Origin: Candidatus Denitrolinea symbiosum
GTDB lineage: Bacteria > Chloroflexota > Anaerolineae > Anaerolineales > Villigracilaceae
Assembly: GCA_017312345.1 (NCBI GenBank)
Contig: BLAA01000001.1
Location: 124,001 to 188,000 of the forward strand
Direction of reading: 5' to 3'
DNA: 64,000 bases
Under the pieces are notes generated by a model. The model saw nothing but the letters and a program-made list of their open reading frames with translations, did not search any database and had not been told where the DNA came from. Both the position numbers and the translations under genes were made by a program. Positions 51,944-61,794 of this stretch are shown here, piece after piece. Every line of letters starts with the position of its first letter. The first letter of the stretch is position 1.

Positions 51944-52273
51944 CTATTCCGCTAAAGGGATGATTTTTCCTTCTCGACGGGCGATCTCAATGATCAAATT
52001 TGCGTCGTCTTCCTTGTATTGTTTCTCGCCAACAGGGATGGGTTCAATGCGAAAATCGGTGTGAGCGGCAATGCGCCACAACTTGACGAGGTCTTTGTAA
52101 GTGCGCCGTTTATCATACAATGGCGATACGACTAACAGGTCAATGTCGCTCCATTCGTGCTCCTGTCCTCGCGCGTGTGAACCATACAGAACGCCGTATT
52201 TCACGGGAATGCCTTTCTGTTTTACCGCTTGAAGGTAATTTCGAACAGACTTTACAATTTTTTTATCAGCCAT
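51944..52273 (-). CDS. MNT-type nucleotidyltransferase (antitoxin of a HEPN/MNT pair)
   Basis: 109 residues. The minimal nucleotidyltransferase core is GVLYGSHARGQEHEWSDIDL with GS and two Asp, and a further Asp near FRIEPIPVG. MNT antitoxins modify and silence HEPN RNase toxins. Its start overlaps a truncated HEPN frame. The stop is 6 bp from nuoF, so it is co-transcribed with complex I. The core residues look intact. Confidence 0.8.
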   Translation of the reverse strand: MADKKIVKSVRNYLQAVKQKGIPVKYGVLYGSHARGQEHEWSDIDLLVVSPLYDKRRTYKDLVKLWRIAAHTDFRIEPIPVGEKQYKEDDANLIIEIARREGKIIPLAE

Positions 52274-54634: not shown

Positions 54635-55123
54635 TTACTTCGCCGCCAAATCCTTGAACTTCATGGCCTGCACTTTTTCGTGCAGCGTCACCACGCCGTG
54701 GATCAACGCTTCGGGGCGCGGCGGACAGCCGGCCACGTACACGTCCACCGGCACCACCTCGTCCACCCCCTGGAAGATGGCGTAGTTATTGAAGACGCCC
54801 CCGGTCGAGGCGCAGTCGCCCATCGCCAGCACCCATTTCGGTTCGGGCATCTGATCGTACAAACGGCGCAGGACGGGTCCCATCTTGCGCGAGACGCGTC
54901 CCGCCACGATCATCAGGTCCGATTGGCGCGGACTGGCGCGCATCAGTTCCATGCCGAAGCGGCTCATATCGTAATTCGCCGCCTGCGCGCCCATCATCTC
55001 AATGGCGCAGCAGGCCAGTCCAAACAGCATCGGCCACATGGCGCGCGTCCGCCCCCAATTCACGACGGTTTCCAGCGTGGTGGTCACCACGCCCATGTTT
55101 CCAAGTTTCGATTCTACTCCCAT
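54635..55123 (-). CDS. nuoB: NADH-quinone oxidoreductase subunit B
   Basis: 162 residues. The N2 cluster cysteines are seen in [24 protein letters not shown] and [14 protein letters not shown]. It overlaps nuoA by 10 bp. Confidence 0.95.
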
Positions 55124-55470
55124 TCGAGCGCTCCTTTCTTCCAGGCATAGACGTAGCCCACCAGTAAGATCACAATAAAAACCGCCATTTCGATGAAGCC
55201 GAATAATTTCAACTGGCGGAACACGATCGCCCAGGGCAGGAAGAACACCACTTCGATGTCGAACAGGATGAACAGGACCGCGACGAGATAGAATCGCACC
55301 GGCATCCGCCGCGTGCCTGGTCCGATGGGGGACATGCCCGACTCATACGATTCACTCTTCACCTGGGACTTACGCTTCGGCCCGAACAGTTCTCCCATCC
55401 CGATGGCGACCAGACCGACTATAACAGACAGCGCAATCAGCAAAGCAATTGCAAGGTACTCAAGCAACAT
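55114..55470 (-). CDS. nuoA: NADH-quinone oxidoreductase subunit A
   Basis: 118 residues with three helices. Conserved parts are [20 protein letters not shown] and [18 protein letters not shown]. It is the first gene of the operon; the leader of about 130 nt upstream carries a dyad. Confidence 0.95.
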
Positions 55471-55689: not shown

Positions 55690-56094
55690 TTACGCGGGTT
55701 GGAACTGCGACCCCGCCTCCGCCACCGTCCCACAGGACAGCGCCTGTCCGTCGGGACACCTTTGATATTCATAGCTTCCCCCGCCCGGCGTCGGCGTGCC
55801 GGGACCGAGCGTGATGCAAATATAATCCACACAATACTGCCCGGGCGGACAATTGAGCTTTCCCGGAGAGCATTGAGTTATAGTTTTCGTGCAGAAGCCA
55901 TATCTTTCTGCATCAGGGCAAGGGCTTGGAATTGAAAGGCAAGTGTAGCCAAAGCCGCATGCGTTGCTATTACAACATGGATCATCTTCTTTGGCATAGA
56001 GTCTGAAAAATTGCGGGACAACTACAAAAGACAAAAAGCAAACGATAAGCGCTGTGAAAAGAGCGGTCTCTATTCTGCGAAGATACGTTTCCAT
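55690..56094 (-). CDS. Secreted Cys-rich protein, cassette copy 1
   Basis: 134 residues. An N-terminal hydrophobic segment (TALIVCFLSFVVVPQFF) is a signal anchor. The exported part has eleven or more cysteines: DPCCNSNACGFGYTCLSIPS, then PCPDAERYGFCTKTITQCSP, NCPPGQYCVDYICI and a GPGTPTPGGG linker. The paired-cysteine spacing suggests several disulfides. No family is recognised. Near-identical in design to the protein at 57437-57820, and downstream of a lipoprotein gene in each case. This copy has 20 extra C-terminal residues. Confidence 0.7.
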   Translation of the reverse strand: METYLRRIETALFTALIVCFLSFVVVPQFFRLYAKEDDPCCNSNACGFGYTCLSIPSPCPDAERYGFCTKTITQCSPGKLNCPPGQYCVDYICITLGPGTPTPGGGSYEYQRCPDGQALSCGTVAEAGSQFQPA

Positions 56095-56124
56095 AATTTA
56101 ATATTAGCAGATTGTGGCTTTTTA

Positions 56125-57414
56125 TCACTTGAAAACTCCATAGAAGATTATCTTTTCTATTTCCGGCGTGATAACTGCCTCTTTGCCCTCGTCAACCAGA
56201 CTTTGTAAAAGTCCGTTTTTGTAGTCGCCACCACCTTGAAGACCGTTTAAAGGTCTAATAAACGGGTTGTAACTTTCCTCTGGTATTTCTCCCATAAACA
56301 GCGGCGTATGCAGCCCACTTTTATATTCGTCTAAGAAATACTGTAATCCTCTTTTGGGAATTACTATGTGTAAAATGCCGATGGTTGTCTTATCGGGGTC
56401 TTTGCTCGGATTGGGGTTGTTGATGGCGATGCCAAGCAGAAGTTCTTCTTTATTTGGAAGATTTTTATCAAATATTCTGTCGTTTATCACGCCGATGGAA
56501 ACCACTTTATAGGGCGGTTCGCGATTTGGACTATCGGCTACATTGTAGATAGGTCCGAAATACTTTACATCAGATATATTGCCATCTATCCCTATTCTTT
56601 CAAACCGATTCCACCCATAATTGACCGCCTGCGGATCCACCGCCACCTTTCCCTCGCGAAGCGCCTGCGCTTCCGACGCGACCAGAAACTCCATAAATTT
56701 ATCAATCCCGCCTATCTTCTCAACGTCGTATTTGGGATATTTGCCGTCGGCTCTGGCTTCGGTCGCAATTTCCAACGGGAAGTCCACGCCCGCCTGCTCC
56801 GGCGCCAGCCACCCGCCGCTCCCAACGTCGAAGACCGCCAGCGGATTGCCATGCTCGTCGCGGAAGACCATCTTTCCGTCCAGCGTCTTTTCCGTCTGAT
56901 CGGGCCATTCGCGGACGAAGGCGGGTTTGTTTTTCGCCAATTGTCCGCCGATGACCATCGTCTCCGCGACCTCGTCGGCGGGGATCTTCGACACCTCGTC
57001 GAAGTCCGCGTACTGCTTCGCCCACTGTCCGCTTTCGAGATCGTAATACAGCGTCACCTTCTCGCCCGATTTGGTCGTCCCTTCATAGGCGACGACGCGA
57101 TCCCAGAAGGTCAGCGACTTCCCGCTCCAGGCGATGTCCCTGGCGCTCTCCCCCGCCGCAAACGACGAGACGACGTCCTCCGGCGCGCTCTCCGCCTGCG
57201 GGGCCATCTTCAACTTATCCGCGCCCGACATTGACTTCAAATCTTCCCGCGTCAACTTTGGCATCGGCGTGACGGTCGCGGTCGCCGTCGGCGGGACTGG
57301 CGTTCGCGTGGCGGCTGTCGTGGGCGGCTCCTCAACGGGTGAGGGGACCGGGGTGAGGGTCGGCGCGCAGCCCGCCAGCAGAATGACAAAGCACAGGGAC
57401 AGGACGATTTTCAT
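56125..57414 (-). CDS. Lipoprotein of unknown function, cassette copy 1
   Basis: 429 residues from ATG 57414 (MKIVLSLCFVILLAGCAPTL); the extension to 57603 is unrelated. The lipobox is LLAGC with Cys 16, then a Pro/Thr linker (PVPPTATATVTPMP). The body has no known motif by eye. Conserved blocks shared with copy 2 are VAYEGTTKSGEKVTLYYDLE, PADEVAETMVIGG, FPLEIATEARADGKYPKYDV and LGIAINNPNPSKDP near the end. Probably sits on the outer face of the membrane beside the Cys-rich partner. Confidence 0.75.
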   Translation of the reverse strand: MKIVLSLCFVILLAGCAPTLTPVPSPVEEPPTTAATRTPVPPTATATVTPMPKLTREDLKSMSGADKLKMAPQAESAPEDVVSSFAAGESARDIAWSGKSLTFWDRVVAYEGTTKSGEKVTLYYDLESGQWAKQYADFDEVSKIPADEVAETMVIGGQLAKNKPAFVREWPDQTEKTLDGKMVFRDEHGNPLAVFDVGSGGWLAPEQAGVDFPLEIATEARADGKYPKYDVEKIGGIDKFMEFLVASEAQALREGKVAVDPQAVNYGWNRFERIGIDGNISDVKYFGPIYNVADSPNREPPYKVVSIGVINDRIFDKNLPNKEELLLGIAINNPNPSKDPDKTTIGILHIVIPKRGLQYFLDEYKSGLHTPLFMGEIPEESYNPFIRPLNGLQGGGDYKNGLLQSLVDEGKEAVITPEIEKIIFYGVFK

Positions 57415-57436
57415 CACGACCTCGCTGTTGCGAATA

Positions 57437-57820
57437 TTATCGCACAAATCGCGCGGCGAGCGTCCAGGAATTCGCGAATTCGTGCCGTATTCGTGGACGG
57501 GTTTGCCCCCCGCCCGGCGTCGGCGTGCCGGGACCGAACCCGACACAAACATAGTCCATACAATACATCCCAGCCGGACAGCCGTAACCGTTAGGGCATT
57601 CAATTATAGATTGCGTGCAGGAGCCGTATTTTTTATTTTTCGGACAAGGACTTGGAATTGAAATGCAAGTGTAGCCAAAGCCACAAGCGTTGCTATTGCA
57701 ACATGGATCGCCTTCTATAGCGTAAGCATTGAAAAACTGCGGGATAAGTGCAAAAGACAAAAAGCAAGCGACAAGAGTTCCCAAAAGAACGGTCTTTATT
57801 CTGCGAAGATACGTTTCCAT
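57437..57820 (-). CDS. Secreted Cys-rich protein, cassette copy 2
   Basis: 127 residues. It begins METYLRRIKTVLLGTLVACF and has the cysteine block DPCCNSNACGFGYTCISIPS, then CPKNKKYGSCTQSIIECPNG and GCPAGMYCMDYVCV, as in copy 1. After the GPGTPTPGGG linker the last 20 residues differ from copy 1. It lies between the two lipoprotein genes, 30 bp after the interrupted copy. Confidence 0.7.
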   Translation of the reverse strand: METYLRRIKTVLLGTLVACFLSFALIPQFFNAYAIEGDPCCNSNACGFGYTCISIPSPCPKNKKYGSCTQSIIECPNGYGCPAGMYCMDYVCVGFGPGTPTPGGGQTRPRIRHEFANSWTLAARFVR

Positions 57821-58327
57821 AATCTCATATTAGCAGTTTTCGATTTTTTATCAATAAAAGACTCCCCAAAATATGATTTCTTCCATTTTAGGCGTGATGA
57901 CTGCCTCTTTGCCCTCGTCAACCAGACTTTGTAAAAGCCCACTCTTATAATCGCCTCCGCCTTGAGATTCATTAATAGGCCCAACACTTGGGTCATTACT
58001 TTCTTCTGGTATTTCTCCCAAGAATAATGGAACATGCACTCCACTTTTATACTCATCGAGAAAATACTGCAACATATCTTTTTGGATTGATATGTGTAAA
58101 ACGCCAGTAATAGTTTTTTCTGGGTCTTTGCTTGGGTTGGGATTATTAATGGCAATACCCAAAAGATATCTTTCTCTACCTGCCAGTTTCGAATCAAATG
58201 TTGAACTATCTATCACGCCGATGGAAACCACTTTGTAGGGCGGCTCGCGATTTGGGCTGTCGTTGACGTTGTAGATGAGTCCGAAGTCTTTTGTCTCCAT
58301 TGGAATACGCACCCCATTTTCCATCAA

Positions 58328-59300
58328 GGCTCATGTTCAGAACAAGTGATTACGGACCAGTTTAGCGACGAGACTCGGCGAGATGCGTTTATGGTTCACA
58401 GCCAATTCGTGGATGGCGGCATAGCCTGACAAGTATGCTTTATGAACACCGCGATAGGGTCGCAAGAAATTACGCAACCCTGTCCAGCCGCCTTCGTTGG
58501 AGTTGACGTGGACTTCCCGAACGCCATCTCCATCGTCATCACGTGCATATTCATTCTTTCCATGACAGACGGTGTGACGCACGCGTTGTAAGCGATTGTA
58601 ACTGTCGTATTCATCTGTGTAGAGCGTCGCTTCTGGTCTGGTAAAGTTCTCGACAAATGGACACAAGCTATCGCCTTTTGTATCTGGCATCACTTGGATC
58701 CGCACTTGGCGCGTTTCGCGCCCAATCACTGCGCAGACCGGCGGACGATCATTCGCATACGTCCCTCGCCCGCGCCGTTTATTGGCTCGTTTGCGAGGCG
58801 GATCCTGCGGATCGCCGTGCCACTCTCCTTTTTTCCCCCGCGTTCTGGAACATTTCGTCGGTTTCGACTTCCAGATCGCTCAAGGGTTTGGTCGCTTGTT
58901 CCTTCTTGGCATTCGCCTGAAGCAGATGCCTCACGGTCAGCCCGGTTGTGCGACTGATGCTCAATTCTCGCGACAACTTCGCCGTTGGCTTCCCCTGCAC
59001 CACCTCGCGAATGAAAAGGATAGTTTGCTCAGGAGTGAAGTGTCTTCCTTCAAACGCAGTTCCGCTGTAGAGATTGTAGATGCCACGACAGGCTTTGCAC
59101 CGATATACAATCAGACCGCTTTGTTTGGTCTTACGAAATCGAGTCGCCTGCTCAAGACCAGCTTTACAATGTGGGCATTTCAATCCATCGGGATGAAAAT
59201 GCTCGGTTAGCCAGACCGTACATGCATCTCGATCCATGAGTTCAACAATTGGAAAGTCCATGCCCCTATTCTACCGAATCACTTGTTCTGAACATGAGCC
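58328..59300 (-). mobile_element. IS1595-like insertion sequence
   Basis: 973 bp. The ends are perfect 24-bp inverted repeats starting GGCTCATGTTCAGAACAAGT (58328-58351 and 59277-59300). Flanking 8-bp direct repeats TCCATCAA lie at 58320-58327 and 59301-59308. Size, 8-bp duplication and an ISXO2-type transposase all fit the IS1595 family. It carries one transposase frame, broken by a frameshift. Confidence 0.88.
58337..59261 (-). pseudogene. ISXO2-type transposase with frameshift
   Basis: The first part (59261-58779) has the zinc finger CPHCKAGLEQ...CKACRGIYNL and the first catalytic Asp in DLEVETDEMFQNAGEK. The second part (ending 58337) has the second Asp in LYTDEYDSY and the last acidic residue in HVNSNEGGWTGLRNFLRPYR. 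Between them the family sequence GEWHGDPQDPPRKRANKRRG is in a frame shifted by +1, at a run of six A (near 58842-58847). Five A would restore the frame, so one A was probably gained; a programmed shift is less likely. Confidence 0.8.
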
Positions 59301-60159
59301 TCCATCAAATATAGTTGAAACCGATTCCACCCATAATTGACCGCCTGCGGATCCACCGTCACCTTTCCCTCGCGAAGCGCCTGCGCTTCCGACGCGACCA
59401 GCAACTCCATAAATTTATCAATCCCGCCCATTTTCTCAACGTCGTATTTGGGGTATTTGCCGTCGGCTCTGGCTTCGGTCGCAATTTCCAACGGGAAGTC
59501 CACGCCCGCCTGCTCCGGCGCCAGCCACCCGCCGCCCTCAACGTCGAAGACCGCCAGCGGATTGCCATGCTCGTCGCGGAAGACCATCTTCCCGTCCAGC
59601 GTCTTCTCCGTCTGATCGGGCCATTCGCGGACGAAGGCGGGTTTGTTTTTCGCCAACCTTCCGCCGATGACCATCGTCTCCGCGACCTCGTCGGCGGGGA
59701 TCTTCGACACCTCATCGAAGTCCGCGTACTGCTTCGCCCACTGTCCGCTTTCGAGATCGTAGTACAGCGTCACCTTCTCGCCCGATTTGGTCGTCCCCTC
59801 ATAGGCGACGACGCGCTCCCAGAAGGTCAGCGACTTTCCGCTCCAGACGATGTCTTTGGCGCTCTCTCCCGCCGCAAACGACGAGACGACGTCCTCCGGC
59901 GCGCTCTCCGCCTGCGGAGCCATCTTCAACTTGTCATCAACCGACATTGACTTCAAATCTTCCATCGTCAACCGCGGCATCGGCGTGATGGTCGCGGTCG
60001 CCGTCGGCGGGACCGGCGTCCACGTGGCGGCTGGCGTGGGCGACTCCCCTGCGGGCGAGGGGACCGGGGTGAGGGCCGGCGCGCAACCCGCCAAAACAAC
60101 AGCGAAAACACACAGAACAACAACGAATCGTTTCACAGCGTCTTCCCTCATGCGCGCCT

Positions 60160-61794
60160 TCAATCTCCCAAATAATCCCTCAACAGCCTCGTCTGGGCGG
60201 GATGGCGAAGTTTCCGCAAAGCCTTGGCCTCAATCTGGCGGATGCGTTCGCGAGTCACCTCGTAAAAATCGCTCACCTCGTCCAGCGTATGACTTTGCCC
60301 GTCCGCCAGCCCGAAGCGCAGTTCGAGCACCTGACGCTCGCGCTCGGTCAGCGTCGCGAGGGCGCGCTGGATCTGCTCGCGGAGCATCTCACGCGCGGCA
60401 GAATCGAGCGGGGAAATCAAATCCTCGTCGGGGATGAAATCCTCCAGCCGGCTCGAATCGTCCCCGCCGACGGGCCCGTCCAGCGAGACGGGGTCCTCCG
60501 CGGCGCGGAGCACGCGTCCGATGCGGCGCACGGCCGAATCCAACTTGCGCTGGACTGCGGCCTCGAGCGGCTGGTTTTCCGCGCGGGCGCGCAGCACAAC
60601 CTGCACTTCCGACGTGGACAAATAACCGACCTCCAGGGCCAGCTCCTCGAAACTGGGATCGCGCCCCAATTCCTGCGTCAACTGATGCTGGGCGCGCAGG
60701 ATGCGCGTGATCGAATCGAACAGATAGACCGGGATGCGGATGGTGCGCGCCTGCTCGGCGATGGAACGGTTGATGGACTGGCGGATCCACCAGGTGGCAT
60801 ACGTGCTGAACTTGAAGCCGCGCCGCGCGTCGAACTTGTTAATGGCGCGCAGCAACCCAAGATTCCCCTCCTGGATCAGGTCGAGGAACGGGATGCCGCG
60901 CCCGAGGTAACGCTTGGCTACGCTCACCACCAGCCGCAGGTTGGCGCGGATGAGCGCGTGATGCGCCTCCTCCGCCCGGGCGCGGACGGCGTCCATTTCA
61001 GCCTCGAGGACGGAATCGCACGGCAGGCGCCCGTACATCGTCCGCAGGGCAGGCAGCGCGCCGCGCGCGCGGAGATGCGTCAGTAGCCATTCGGCGTACT
61101 CGGCCGGGAACAGGTACAGGCATAGAAAGACGGAAAAGGCCTTGCGCACCAGCGTGTCCCAGAGCGGATTGCGTCCCCACAACGCGCCGGCAAGATAGGA
61201 ATGGAAATACGAGGGCTGGCCCGCGTCCCATTGCCGATGAAGCGCCTGGGCCTCAGCCAGCGCAAGGGACAGGTCGGGCAGGGCCGCGTCGAGGTTCGCC
61301 GCGTCCTCCGCGAAACGCGTCCACGAAGTATCCAGCTCGCGGACGACGGCGTGGTAGACCGCGCAGGCCAGTCCCACGCCCTTGCGGACGGGATGCCGCC
61401 GAAACGTCAGGAGAAGGCGTTCGGCTTCGATGCAGATCGAGAGGCGGAACTCGCTGTCCACGTCCAGCAATTTCACCAGGCCGATCTCGGTCAGGTAGAG
61501 GCGGACGGGGTCTTCCATCCACTCCGCGGAGGCGGCCTGGGGCTTAAAGTCCAGTTCAGATTCGTCCAGTTCCTCTCCGGCCCGCAGAAGATTCGGCAGG
61601 TCTGGCTCCCCCATTTCTTCGTTCTGGTTCATCAAATCGCGGACGCCGTCCAAACCGCTCCCGGCCTCGTTGAAGTCTTCCTCTTCGCCATCGAACAGCG
61701 ACTCATCCCGCGCCGCGTCCCTGCGCTTTGGGGGGCGCGGATGCGGCGGGGAAGGTTCCTCGCGCCGGGGCGGATGGGAGCGTTTGGCGGTCAT
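60160..61794 (-). CDS. rpoD: Principal-type RNA polymerase sigma factor
   Basis: 544 residues. Region 1.2 is [17 protein letters not shown] (about 96-112). Region 2 is [20 protein letters not shown] to [20 protein letters not shown]. Region 3 follows, and region 4 holds [19 protein letters not shown] and the helix-turn-helix [20 protein letters not shown] stretch of about 160 residues with Trp- and Tyr-rich helices separates regions 1.2 and 2.1. The acidic/basic N-terminus is short. It lies 1 bp from dnaG, as in the macromolecular-synthesis operon but without rpsU. Confidence 0.9.

What the first reader, a model, noticed from the sequence alone, without database searches (positions are those of the whole stretch)
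55690..60136. Tandem duplication of a Cys-rich protein plus lipoprotein cassette
Two copies of a two-gene unit in the same order and spacing. The lipoproteins are near-identical in large blocks of their N-terminal two thirds and diverge more in the last third; the Cys-rich proteins differ after a TPTPGGG linker. This pattern suggests a variable surface pair, perhaps in adhesion or competition, under diversification at the C-termini.
Basis: partly seen in the sequence, partly recalled or inferred. Interest (0 to 1): 0.52.

Follow-up and report, generated by a model that had tools for sequence, protein, structure and literature searches.

The report
Swappable lipoprotein and Cys-rich cassettes
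A Chloroflexota bacterium carries many copies of a two-gene cassette for probable surface proteins whose outer parts stay the same while the middle part, spanning both genes, is swapped as a block, which may be a new bacterial recognition or competition system.

Summary
The duplication is real, but it is the visible edge of something larger. The genome holds nine lipoprotein + Cys-rich pairs at six sites. The lipoprotein C-terminal part and the N-terminal part of the Cys-rich partner are variable (71%, dS 1.27 and 0.61) and vary together (Mantel r 0.80, p 1e-4), independently of the constant part. At one site, two genomes of one species have nearly identical outer flanks but 67%/63% identity across the two-gene middle block. 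A second genus shows the same pattern with the same boundary. The proteins match no Pfam, NCBIfam, PADLOC or PDB family. Best reading: recombination swaps co-inherited halves of a surface pair that probably bind each other; binding and role (recognition, competition) are inferred. The Cys-rich tails differ because a constant tail was cut off, not because of diversification; selection looks purifying.

The parts
59327..60136 (-). lipoprotein A, constant part: signal/lipobox (LAGC), Pro/Thr linker, constant domain to NYGW (an ATG 15 nt upstream, 60151, is an alternative start)
   Evidence: lipobox read from the sequence
59301..59308 (.). target-site duplication TTGATGGA (left copy)
58328..59300 (-). 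IS1595-like insertion element, 973 bp, with 24-nt terminal inverted repeats; transposase in two frames (58779-59261, 58337-58819)
   Evidence: inverted repeat I1; PF12762 3.9e-17; NF033547 2.3e-18
58320..58327 (.). target-site duplication TTGATGGA (right copy)
57851..58327 (-). lipoprotein A, remainder of variable C-terminal part (type 1), cut off from its start by the IS
   Evidence: (L010, 73% to aa 282-428)
57536..57820 (-). Cys-rich A, variable N-terminal part (hydrophobic leader, 11 Cys)
57506..57535 (-). GPGTPTPGGG linker of Cys-rich A (the ORF runs on to 57437 through the border element)
   Evidence: linker 96% nt identity
57461..57505 (-). cassette 5' border element joining cassette A to cassette B
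   Evidence: 7 copies with at most 1 mismatch in the genome, all at cassettes or a cassette remnant
56611..57414 (-). lipoprotein B, constant part (start codon to NYGW); 2 differences in 804 nt from the K3097b cassette about 2.9 Mb away on the contig
56125..56610 (-). lipoprotein B, variable C-terminal part (type 1)
55807..56094 (-). Cys-rich B, variable N-terminal part (hydrophobic leader, 11 Cys)
55777..55806 (-). GPGTPTPGGG linker of Cys-rich B
55690..55776 (-). first part of the constant Cys-rich tail (SYEYQRCPDGQALSCGTVAEAGSQ), truncated; full tail seen in L021:10454-11359 and L053:3117-3848

Best explanation
The region is one site of a dispersed family of two-gene cassettes for probable surface proteins. 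Gene 1 makes a lipoprotein with a constant N-terminal part and a variable C-terminal domain. Gene 2, about 30 nt downstream, makes a small exported-looking Cys-rich protein with a variable N-terminal part, a TPTPGGG linker and a constant tail that most copies have lost. The two variable halves lie next to each other across the gene boundary, so homologous recombination in the constant flanks can replace both halves as one block while keeping anchor, promoter region and linker. SHOWN by sequence: the constant/variable/constant layout, near-identical constant parts at distant sites with unlike variable parts, the replacement of the two-gene block at one site within a species, the same layout in a second genus. 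INFERRED: that the two variable parts bind each other as a cognate pair at the cell surface, which would explain why they are inherited together; and that the pair serves recognition of, or competition with, close relatives, where many alternative specificities are useful.
For: Nine cassettes at six sites. Nine type-1 cassettes compared (7 of the 9 in the genome plus 2 from L053): constant part dS 0.136, variable parts dS 1.27 and 0.61; distances of the two variable parts correlate (Mantel r 0.80, p 1e-4), the constant part does not correlate with them (r -0.15 and -0.10; p 0.80 and 0.66). Trees of the constant and variable lipoprotein parts reject each other (AU p 7e-44 and 2e-81). W_B and K3097b: 2 differences in 804 nt, then 62% identity. 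W_A and L053_2: constant part 95%, variable block 98.5%/98.6%, different neighbours. K250 site, G000 against same-species G150: left flank 98-100%, constant part 96.5%, variable block 67.1% and 63.2%, right flank mostly 95-100%. G071, another genus: 5 type-1 pairs, dS 0.122 against 1.68, boundary again at NYGW. Pairing kept across species: a congener (G005) has a type-3 lipoprotein end (66%) followed by a type-3 Cys-rich protein. Type-2 and type-3 lipoprotein ends each have their own kind of Cys-rich partner.
Against: The C-var and Cys-N trees also reject each other (AU p 6.6e-5 and 1.9e-4), so the pairing is not strict. The correlation can come from physical linkage alone. Three of nine cassettes carry an insertion element in or next to the lipoprotein gene, and most Cys-rich genes lost the constant tail, so not every copy need be functional. 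No fold or domain supports binding: both AlphaFold models were poor (pLDDT 37.8 and 34.8). There is no direct evidence of surface location or expression. G150 and L053 are metagenome assemblies with breaks in the repeats.
Confidence: 0.5

Rival explanations
1. Lipoprotein polymorphic toxins: the constant lipoprotein part delivers a variable C-terminal toxin domain to neighbours and the downstream Cys-rich protein protects the producer, as SitA/SitI do in myxobacteria.
For: Lipobox, constant N-terminal part, at least three unlike C-terminal types in one genome, several cassettes per genome, adjacent co-inherited gene. SitA1 and SitA2 share N-terminal regions and have unrelated C-terminal domains (PMC5562445, passages).
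Against: No toxin domain by Pfam, NCBIfam or PADLOC. The partner looks exported and disulfide-rich, has a constant tail, and varies only at its N-terminus; an immunity protein would be expected to be wholly specific. Within type 1 the variable domains are alleles of one domain, not different toxins.
Confidence: 0.2
2. Plain concerted evolution: an ordinary multi-copy lipoprotein operon in which gene conversion homogenises the first 800 nt only, while the rest drifts; no cognate pairing, no special role.
For: Explains the constant part, the IS hits and tail losses, and the correlation of two linked downstream segments. No congener among six shows the type-1 lipoprotein.
Against: At the K250 site identity is high again outside the block on both sides: the block itself was replaced. 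L053_2/W_A show the block together with a different constant part. The same boundary in two genera and the conserved partner types argue for a functional unit. C-var dN/dS about 0.2.
Confidence: 0.25
3. Antigenic-variation-like or phage-escape system: the copies are a donor repertoire for one expressed locus, changed by gene conversion.
For: Repertoire of related modules and segmental exchange. MgPar repeats of Mycoplasma genitalium also span two adjacent genes (PMC2169797, passages).
Against: Copies have their own start codons and promoter-like leaders rather than being headless donors (sequence reading). No single expression locus was found. No host immune system is known to apply.
Confidence: 0.12
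4. A mobile cassette that inserts by itself, with the 5' border element as its recognition site.
For: The border element occurs seven times with at most 1 mismatch in the genome, always at cassettes or a cassette remnant; palindromes abut cassettes in G071; empty sites in congeners.
Against: No recombinase or transposase is part of the unit, no consistent target duplication or 3' border was found, K250 and K3097b start without the border element, no relative on plasmids or confirmed on viral contigs.
Confidence: 0.08

Closest known systems
SitA/SitI (SitBAI) lipoprotein polymorphic toxins of myxobacteria (PMC5562445, passages read)
   Same: Lipoprotein with shared N-terminal region and unrelated C-terminal domains; several cassettes per genome; adjacent gene inherited with it.
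   Different: No toxin domain detected here; the partner looks exported, is Cys-rich and has a constant part; phylum and delivery (outer-membrane exchange) differ.
agr and comQXP pherotype loci (PMC5981134 and PMC4408185, passages read)
   Same: Adjacent genes whose variable parts lie together (agr: variable region marked across neighbouring genes, AgrC variation mainly in its first 200 residues); comQ clusters have 65-70% nt identity in one species, close to the values seen here.
   Different: Those are single loci with a peptide, its maturation enzyme and a sensor kinase (recalled); here no kinase was found and there are nine copies per genome.
MgPa operon and MgPar repeats of Mycoplasma genitalium (PMC2169797, passages read)
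   Same: Variable stretches in two adjacent genes (MG191, MG192) changed by recombination among repeats that hold parts of both.
   Different: MgPars are partial donors for one expressed operon; here each copy looks like a complete gene pair. No sequence relationship was tested.
esaG/tipC immunity gene arrays (PMC9484751, abstract read)
   Same: Paralogues exchanged by homologous recombination between conserved sequence blocks.
   Different: Single-gene units in tandem arrays that code for immunity proteins; here two-gene units, also dispersed.
IS1595 family insertion sequence (for the element inside lipoprotein A)
   Same: Transposase domains, 8-bp target duplication, inverted repeats.
   Different: Transposase split over two frames near a run of A.

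Membership tests
Polymorphic toxin system (SitA-like) | constant N-terminal part and unrelated C-terminal domains among paralogues | tested here: met
   types 1, 2 and 3 behind one N-terminal part
Polymorphic toxin system (SitA-like) | C-terminal toxin domain | tested here: inconclusive
   no match in Pfam, NCBIfam, PADLOC; structure models too poor
Polymorphic toxin system (SitA-like) | downstream immunity gene, wholly allele-specific | tested here: not met
   partner has hydrophobic leader, 11 Cys and a constant tail
Polymorphic toxin system (SitA-like) | growth inhibition relieved by the partner | not testable with these tools
   bench assay needed
Pherotype locus (agr/com-like) | neighbouring variable halves flanked by constant parts, exchanged as a block | tested here: met
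Pherotype locus (agr/com-like) | sensor kinase and signal-peptide gene | tested here: not met
   no such domain in either protein
Silent-cassette antigenic variation (vls/MgPar-like) | one expressed locus and headless silent donors | tested here: not met
   copies have start codon, lipobox and promoter-like leader; expression itself not testable
Silent-cassette antigenic variation (vls/MgPar-like) | segmental exchange among copies | tested here: met
IS1595 insertion sequence | IS1595 transposase domains, inverted repeats and 8-bp target duplication | tested here: met
   (that the family makes 8-bp duplications is recalled)

The most novel reading that the evidence does not exclude
A previously undescribed cell-surface recognition system in Anaerolineales: a lipoprotein receptor and a secreted Cys-rich ligand whose facing variable halves form a co-inherited specificity block, swapped among about nine loci and between strains by recombination in constant flanks, so that each strain carries its own set of matched pairs.
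Probability: 0.3. Interest if true: 0.78.

Novelty: new variant of a known kind. Interest (0 to 1): 0.55.

Why it matters
Well-studied constant/variable modular systems in bacteria mark self/non-self recognition, competition or immune escape. Here such a layout spans two facing gene halves, in many copies, in an uncultured Chloroflexota order where no such system came up in our paper searches. It gives concrete, testable pairs and a within-species natural experiment at one site. It also explains why the draft assembly of the same species breaks at these loci.

Tried and rejected
Rejected: a simple recent tandem duplication (dS of 0.14 and 1.27 in one gene cannot share one age). Rejected: the Cys-rich C-termini as the diversified part. 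Rejected for want of support: plasmid or phage cargo (no relative in 72,556 plasmid records; none confirmed in viral contigs); a structured RNA (Rfam finds only two tRNAs in the window). Led nowhere: both structure predictions (pLDDT 37.8 and 34.8), so no fold search was made; PDB sequence searches. The idea that the border element is a genome-wide repeat was dropped after (all 7 copies with at most 1 mismatch are at cassettes or a remnant). The rpoD-nuoA site is not a dedicated cassette site: of 82 loci assessed (90 fetched, 8 repeats dropped, from 108 genomes with a nuoA match among 110), 52 show rpoD upstream on the same strand, 45 with under 400 nt between, 7 with more, of which one (L192) holds a lipoprotein with a similar leader.
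Full report
Setting. The finding lies in a genome of 3.7 Mb in 4 contigs (window = G000:C1:124001-188000). The nearest named relative is Anaerolineales bacterium UBA7227 (L055, same rpoD and dnaG neighbours), so the organism is an Anaerolineales member, phylum Chloroflexota (placement of the order recalled). The habitat is not known from any call.

What is there. On the minus strand between rpoD (60160-61794) and nuoA (55114-55470) lie two units of lipoprotein + Cys-rich protein. Lipoprotein A is interrupted by a 973-bp IS1595-like element (58328-59300) with 24-nt inverted ends and an 8-bp target duplication; with the flanks joined in a script the frame is open for 434 aa. An uninterrupted near-copy of its variable block exists in contig L053. 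Cassette A is joined to cassette B at the TPTPGGG codons by a border element that also precedes other cassettes.

A dispersed family. Six full-length lipoproteins, two with a different C-terminal end (L008, L009) and the split copy A make nine in the genome, at six sites: three in tandem at 44-51 kb, two in the window, one at 250 kb, one at 1125 kb, and two at 3095-3101 kb with another gene between. Each is followed by a Cys-rich gene. The leader alone also occurs twice near 626-637 kb, once fused to a phosphonate-binding-protein-like lipoprotein. Short names used below: W_A, W_B (window), K44_1 to K44_3, K250, K1125, K3097a, K3097b (by position in kb).

Constant and variable parts. I compared nine type-1 cassettes: 7 of the 9 in the genome (K44_1 and K3097a, with other C-terminal types, dropped) and 2 from L053. 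Constant lipoprotein part (aa 20-215): nt identity 0.946, dS 0.136. Variable lipoprotein part: 0.708, dS 1.27, median dN/dS 0.22. Cys-rich N-terminal part: 0.713, dS 0.61, median dN/dS 0.59. Linker: 0.963. The step falls just after NYGW. Distances in the two variable parts correlate (r 0.80, p 1e-4) and neither correlates with the constant part. Trees of the constant and variable lipoprotein parts reject each other strongly. Against strict pairing, the trees of the two variable parts also reject each other, at p 6.6e-5 and 1.9e-4.

Exchange seen directly. Lipoprotein B and the K3097b lipoprotein, about 2.9 Mb apart on the contig, differ at 2 of 804 nt and then drop to 62% identity. The A block recurs in L053 at 98.5%/98.6% identity behind a constant part that is only 95% identical, after a different neighbour. 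At the K250 site the same-species genome G150 (the genome of L054, UBA7227) has a left flank at 98-100% identity, a constant part at 96.5% (231 nt seen), a variable block at 67.1% and 63.2%, and a right flank mostly at 95-100%. The G150 left and right pieces lie on different contigs, as the assembly breaks in the repeat; constant part, block and right flank lie within one contig (C146). Eight of eight G150 flank contigs fetched run into cassette sequence; 4 of the 12 genome flank pieces had no match in G150, and one G150 cassette flank (L054) has no match in the window's genome.

Other genomes. Five of six congeners have only 138-356 nt between rpoD and nuoA, that is, an empty site (in the sixth, G002, no rpoD was found there); the K1125 site is empty in G006. 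With the type-1 protein only weak matches, nearly all to the leader, were found in relatives (11 of 60), but the type-3 query found a congener (G005) with a matching lipoprotein end and a matching Cys-rich partner. G071, in another genus of the family, has six dispersed pairs; in the five type-1 pairs (the sixth dropped as another type) the constant part has dS 0.122 and the variable part 1.68, with the boundary again at NYGW. G115 has a type-3-like lipoprotein and a Cys-rich gene between rpoD and nuoA. So the layout is older than the genus and is kept by recombination separately in each lineage (inference).

The Cys-rich tail. The full tail is kept in L021:10454-11359 and, up to the contig end, L053:3117-3848. 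In the other nine of these eleven genes it is cut at or soon after the linker: by a junction to the next cassette (W_A, K44_2, L053_1) or by palindromic repeats or other sequence (the rest).

Identity. No Pfam, NCBIfam, PADLOC or PDB family covers either protein above its cut-off; weak PHROG hits (E 0.0009-0.09) fall mostly on the leader and linker. Lipobox and hydrophobic leader are read from the sequence; no signal-peptide program was available.

Mechanism and its limits. Homologous recombination in an 800-nt constant stretch and in the linker/tail is the simplest way to replace the two-gene block (outcome shown, mechanism inferred). Why the variable halves face each other is best explained if they interact (inferred). 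Comparison with agr, com, MgPa and SitA rests on passages or abstracts read and is one of layout, not of descent. Paper searches found no description of such a system in Anaerolineae or Chloroflexi/Chloroflexota (open-licence papers only, search listings read).

Noticed in passing
window 58779-59261 and 58337-58819: The IS1595-like transposase is split over two frames next to a run of six A; either decay or slippage-dependent expression.
   Followed up: partly
L021:7760-9005 and L024:7626-8871: A second insertion element (374-aa transposase-like ORF, 1246 bp, 100% identical copies) sits at the lipoprotein/Cys-rich junction of two cassettes; in L024 it overlaps the end of the type-3 lipoprotein ORF.
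   Followed up: partly
L025:13885-14937 (minus strand): A phosphonate-binding-protein-like lipoprotein (PF12974, 3.6e-26) carries the cassette's leader, signal and linker, just downstream of a degraded Cys-rich tail (63% over 75 aa, three stops): a leader captured by an unrelated gene.
   Followed up: partly
L134 (G006) against L025 and L021: A membrane-protein gene (L025) and surE-like gene (L021) are neighbours in G006 but about 580 kb apart in the window's genome, each next to a cassette or leader remnant, as if cassette repeats had mediated a rearrangement.
   Followed up: no
L053 (JAJVHZ010000112.1): A contig filed under a Gammaproteobacteria bin carries two cassettes of this family, the only matches in that bin; probably misbinned.
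   Followed up: partly
window 51944-52273 (minus strand): A lone 109-aa nucleotidyltransferase-domain gene (PF01909, 1.2e-9) sits inside the nuo operon between nuoF- and nuoE-like genes.
   Followed up: partly
L106-L111 (G071): Several cassettes have a truncated second leader just upstream of the real one, and palindromes CGTCCCGAAGGTT..AACCTTCGGGACG lie at both ends of cassettes, suggesting repeated insertion at the same place.
   Followed up: partly
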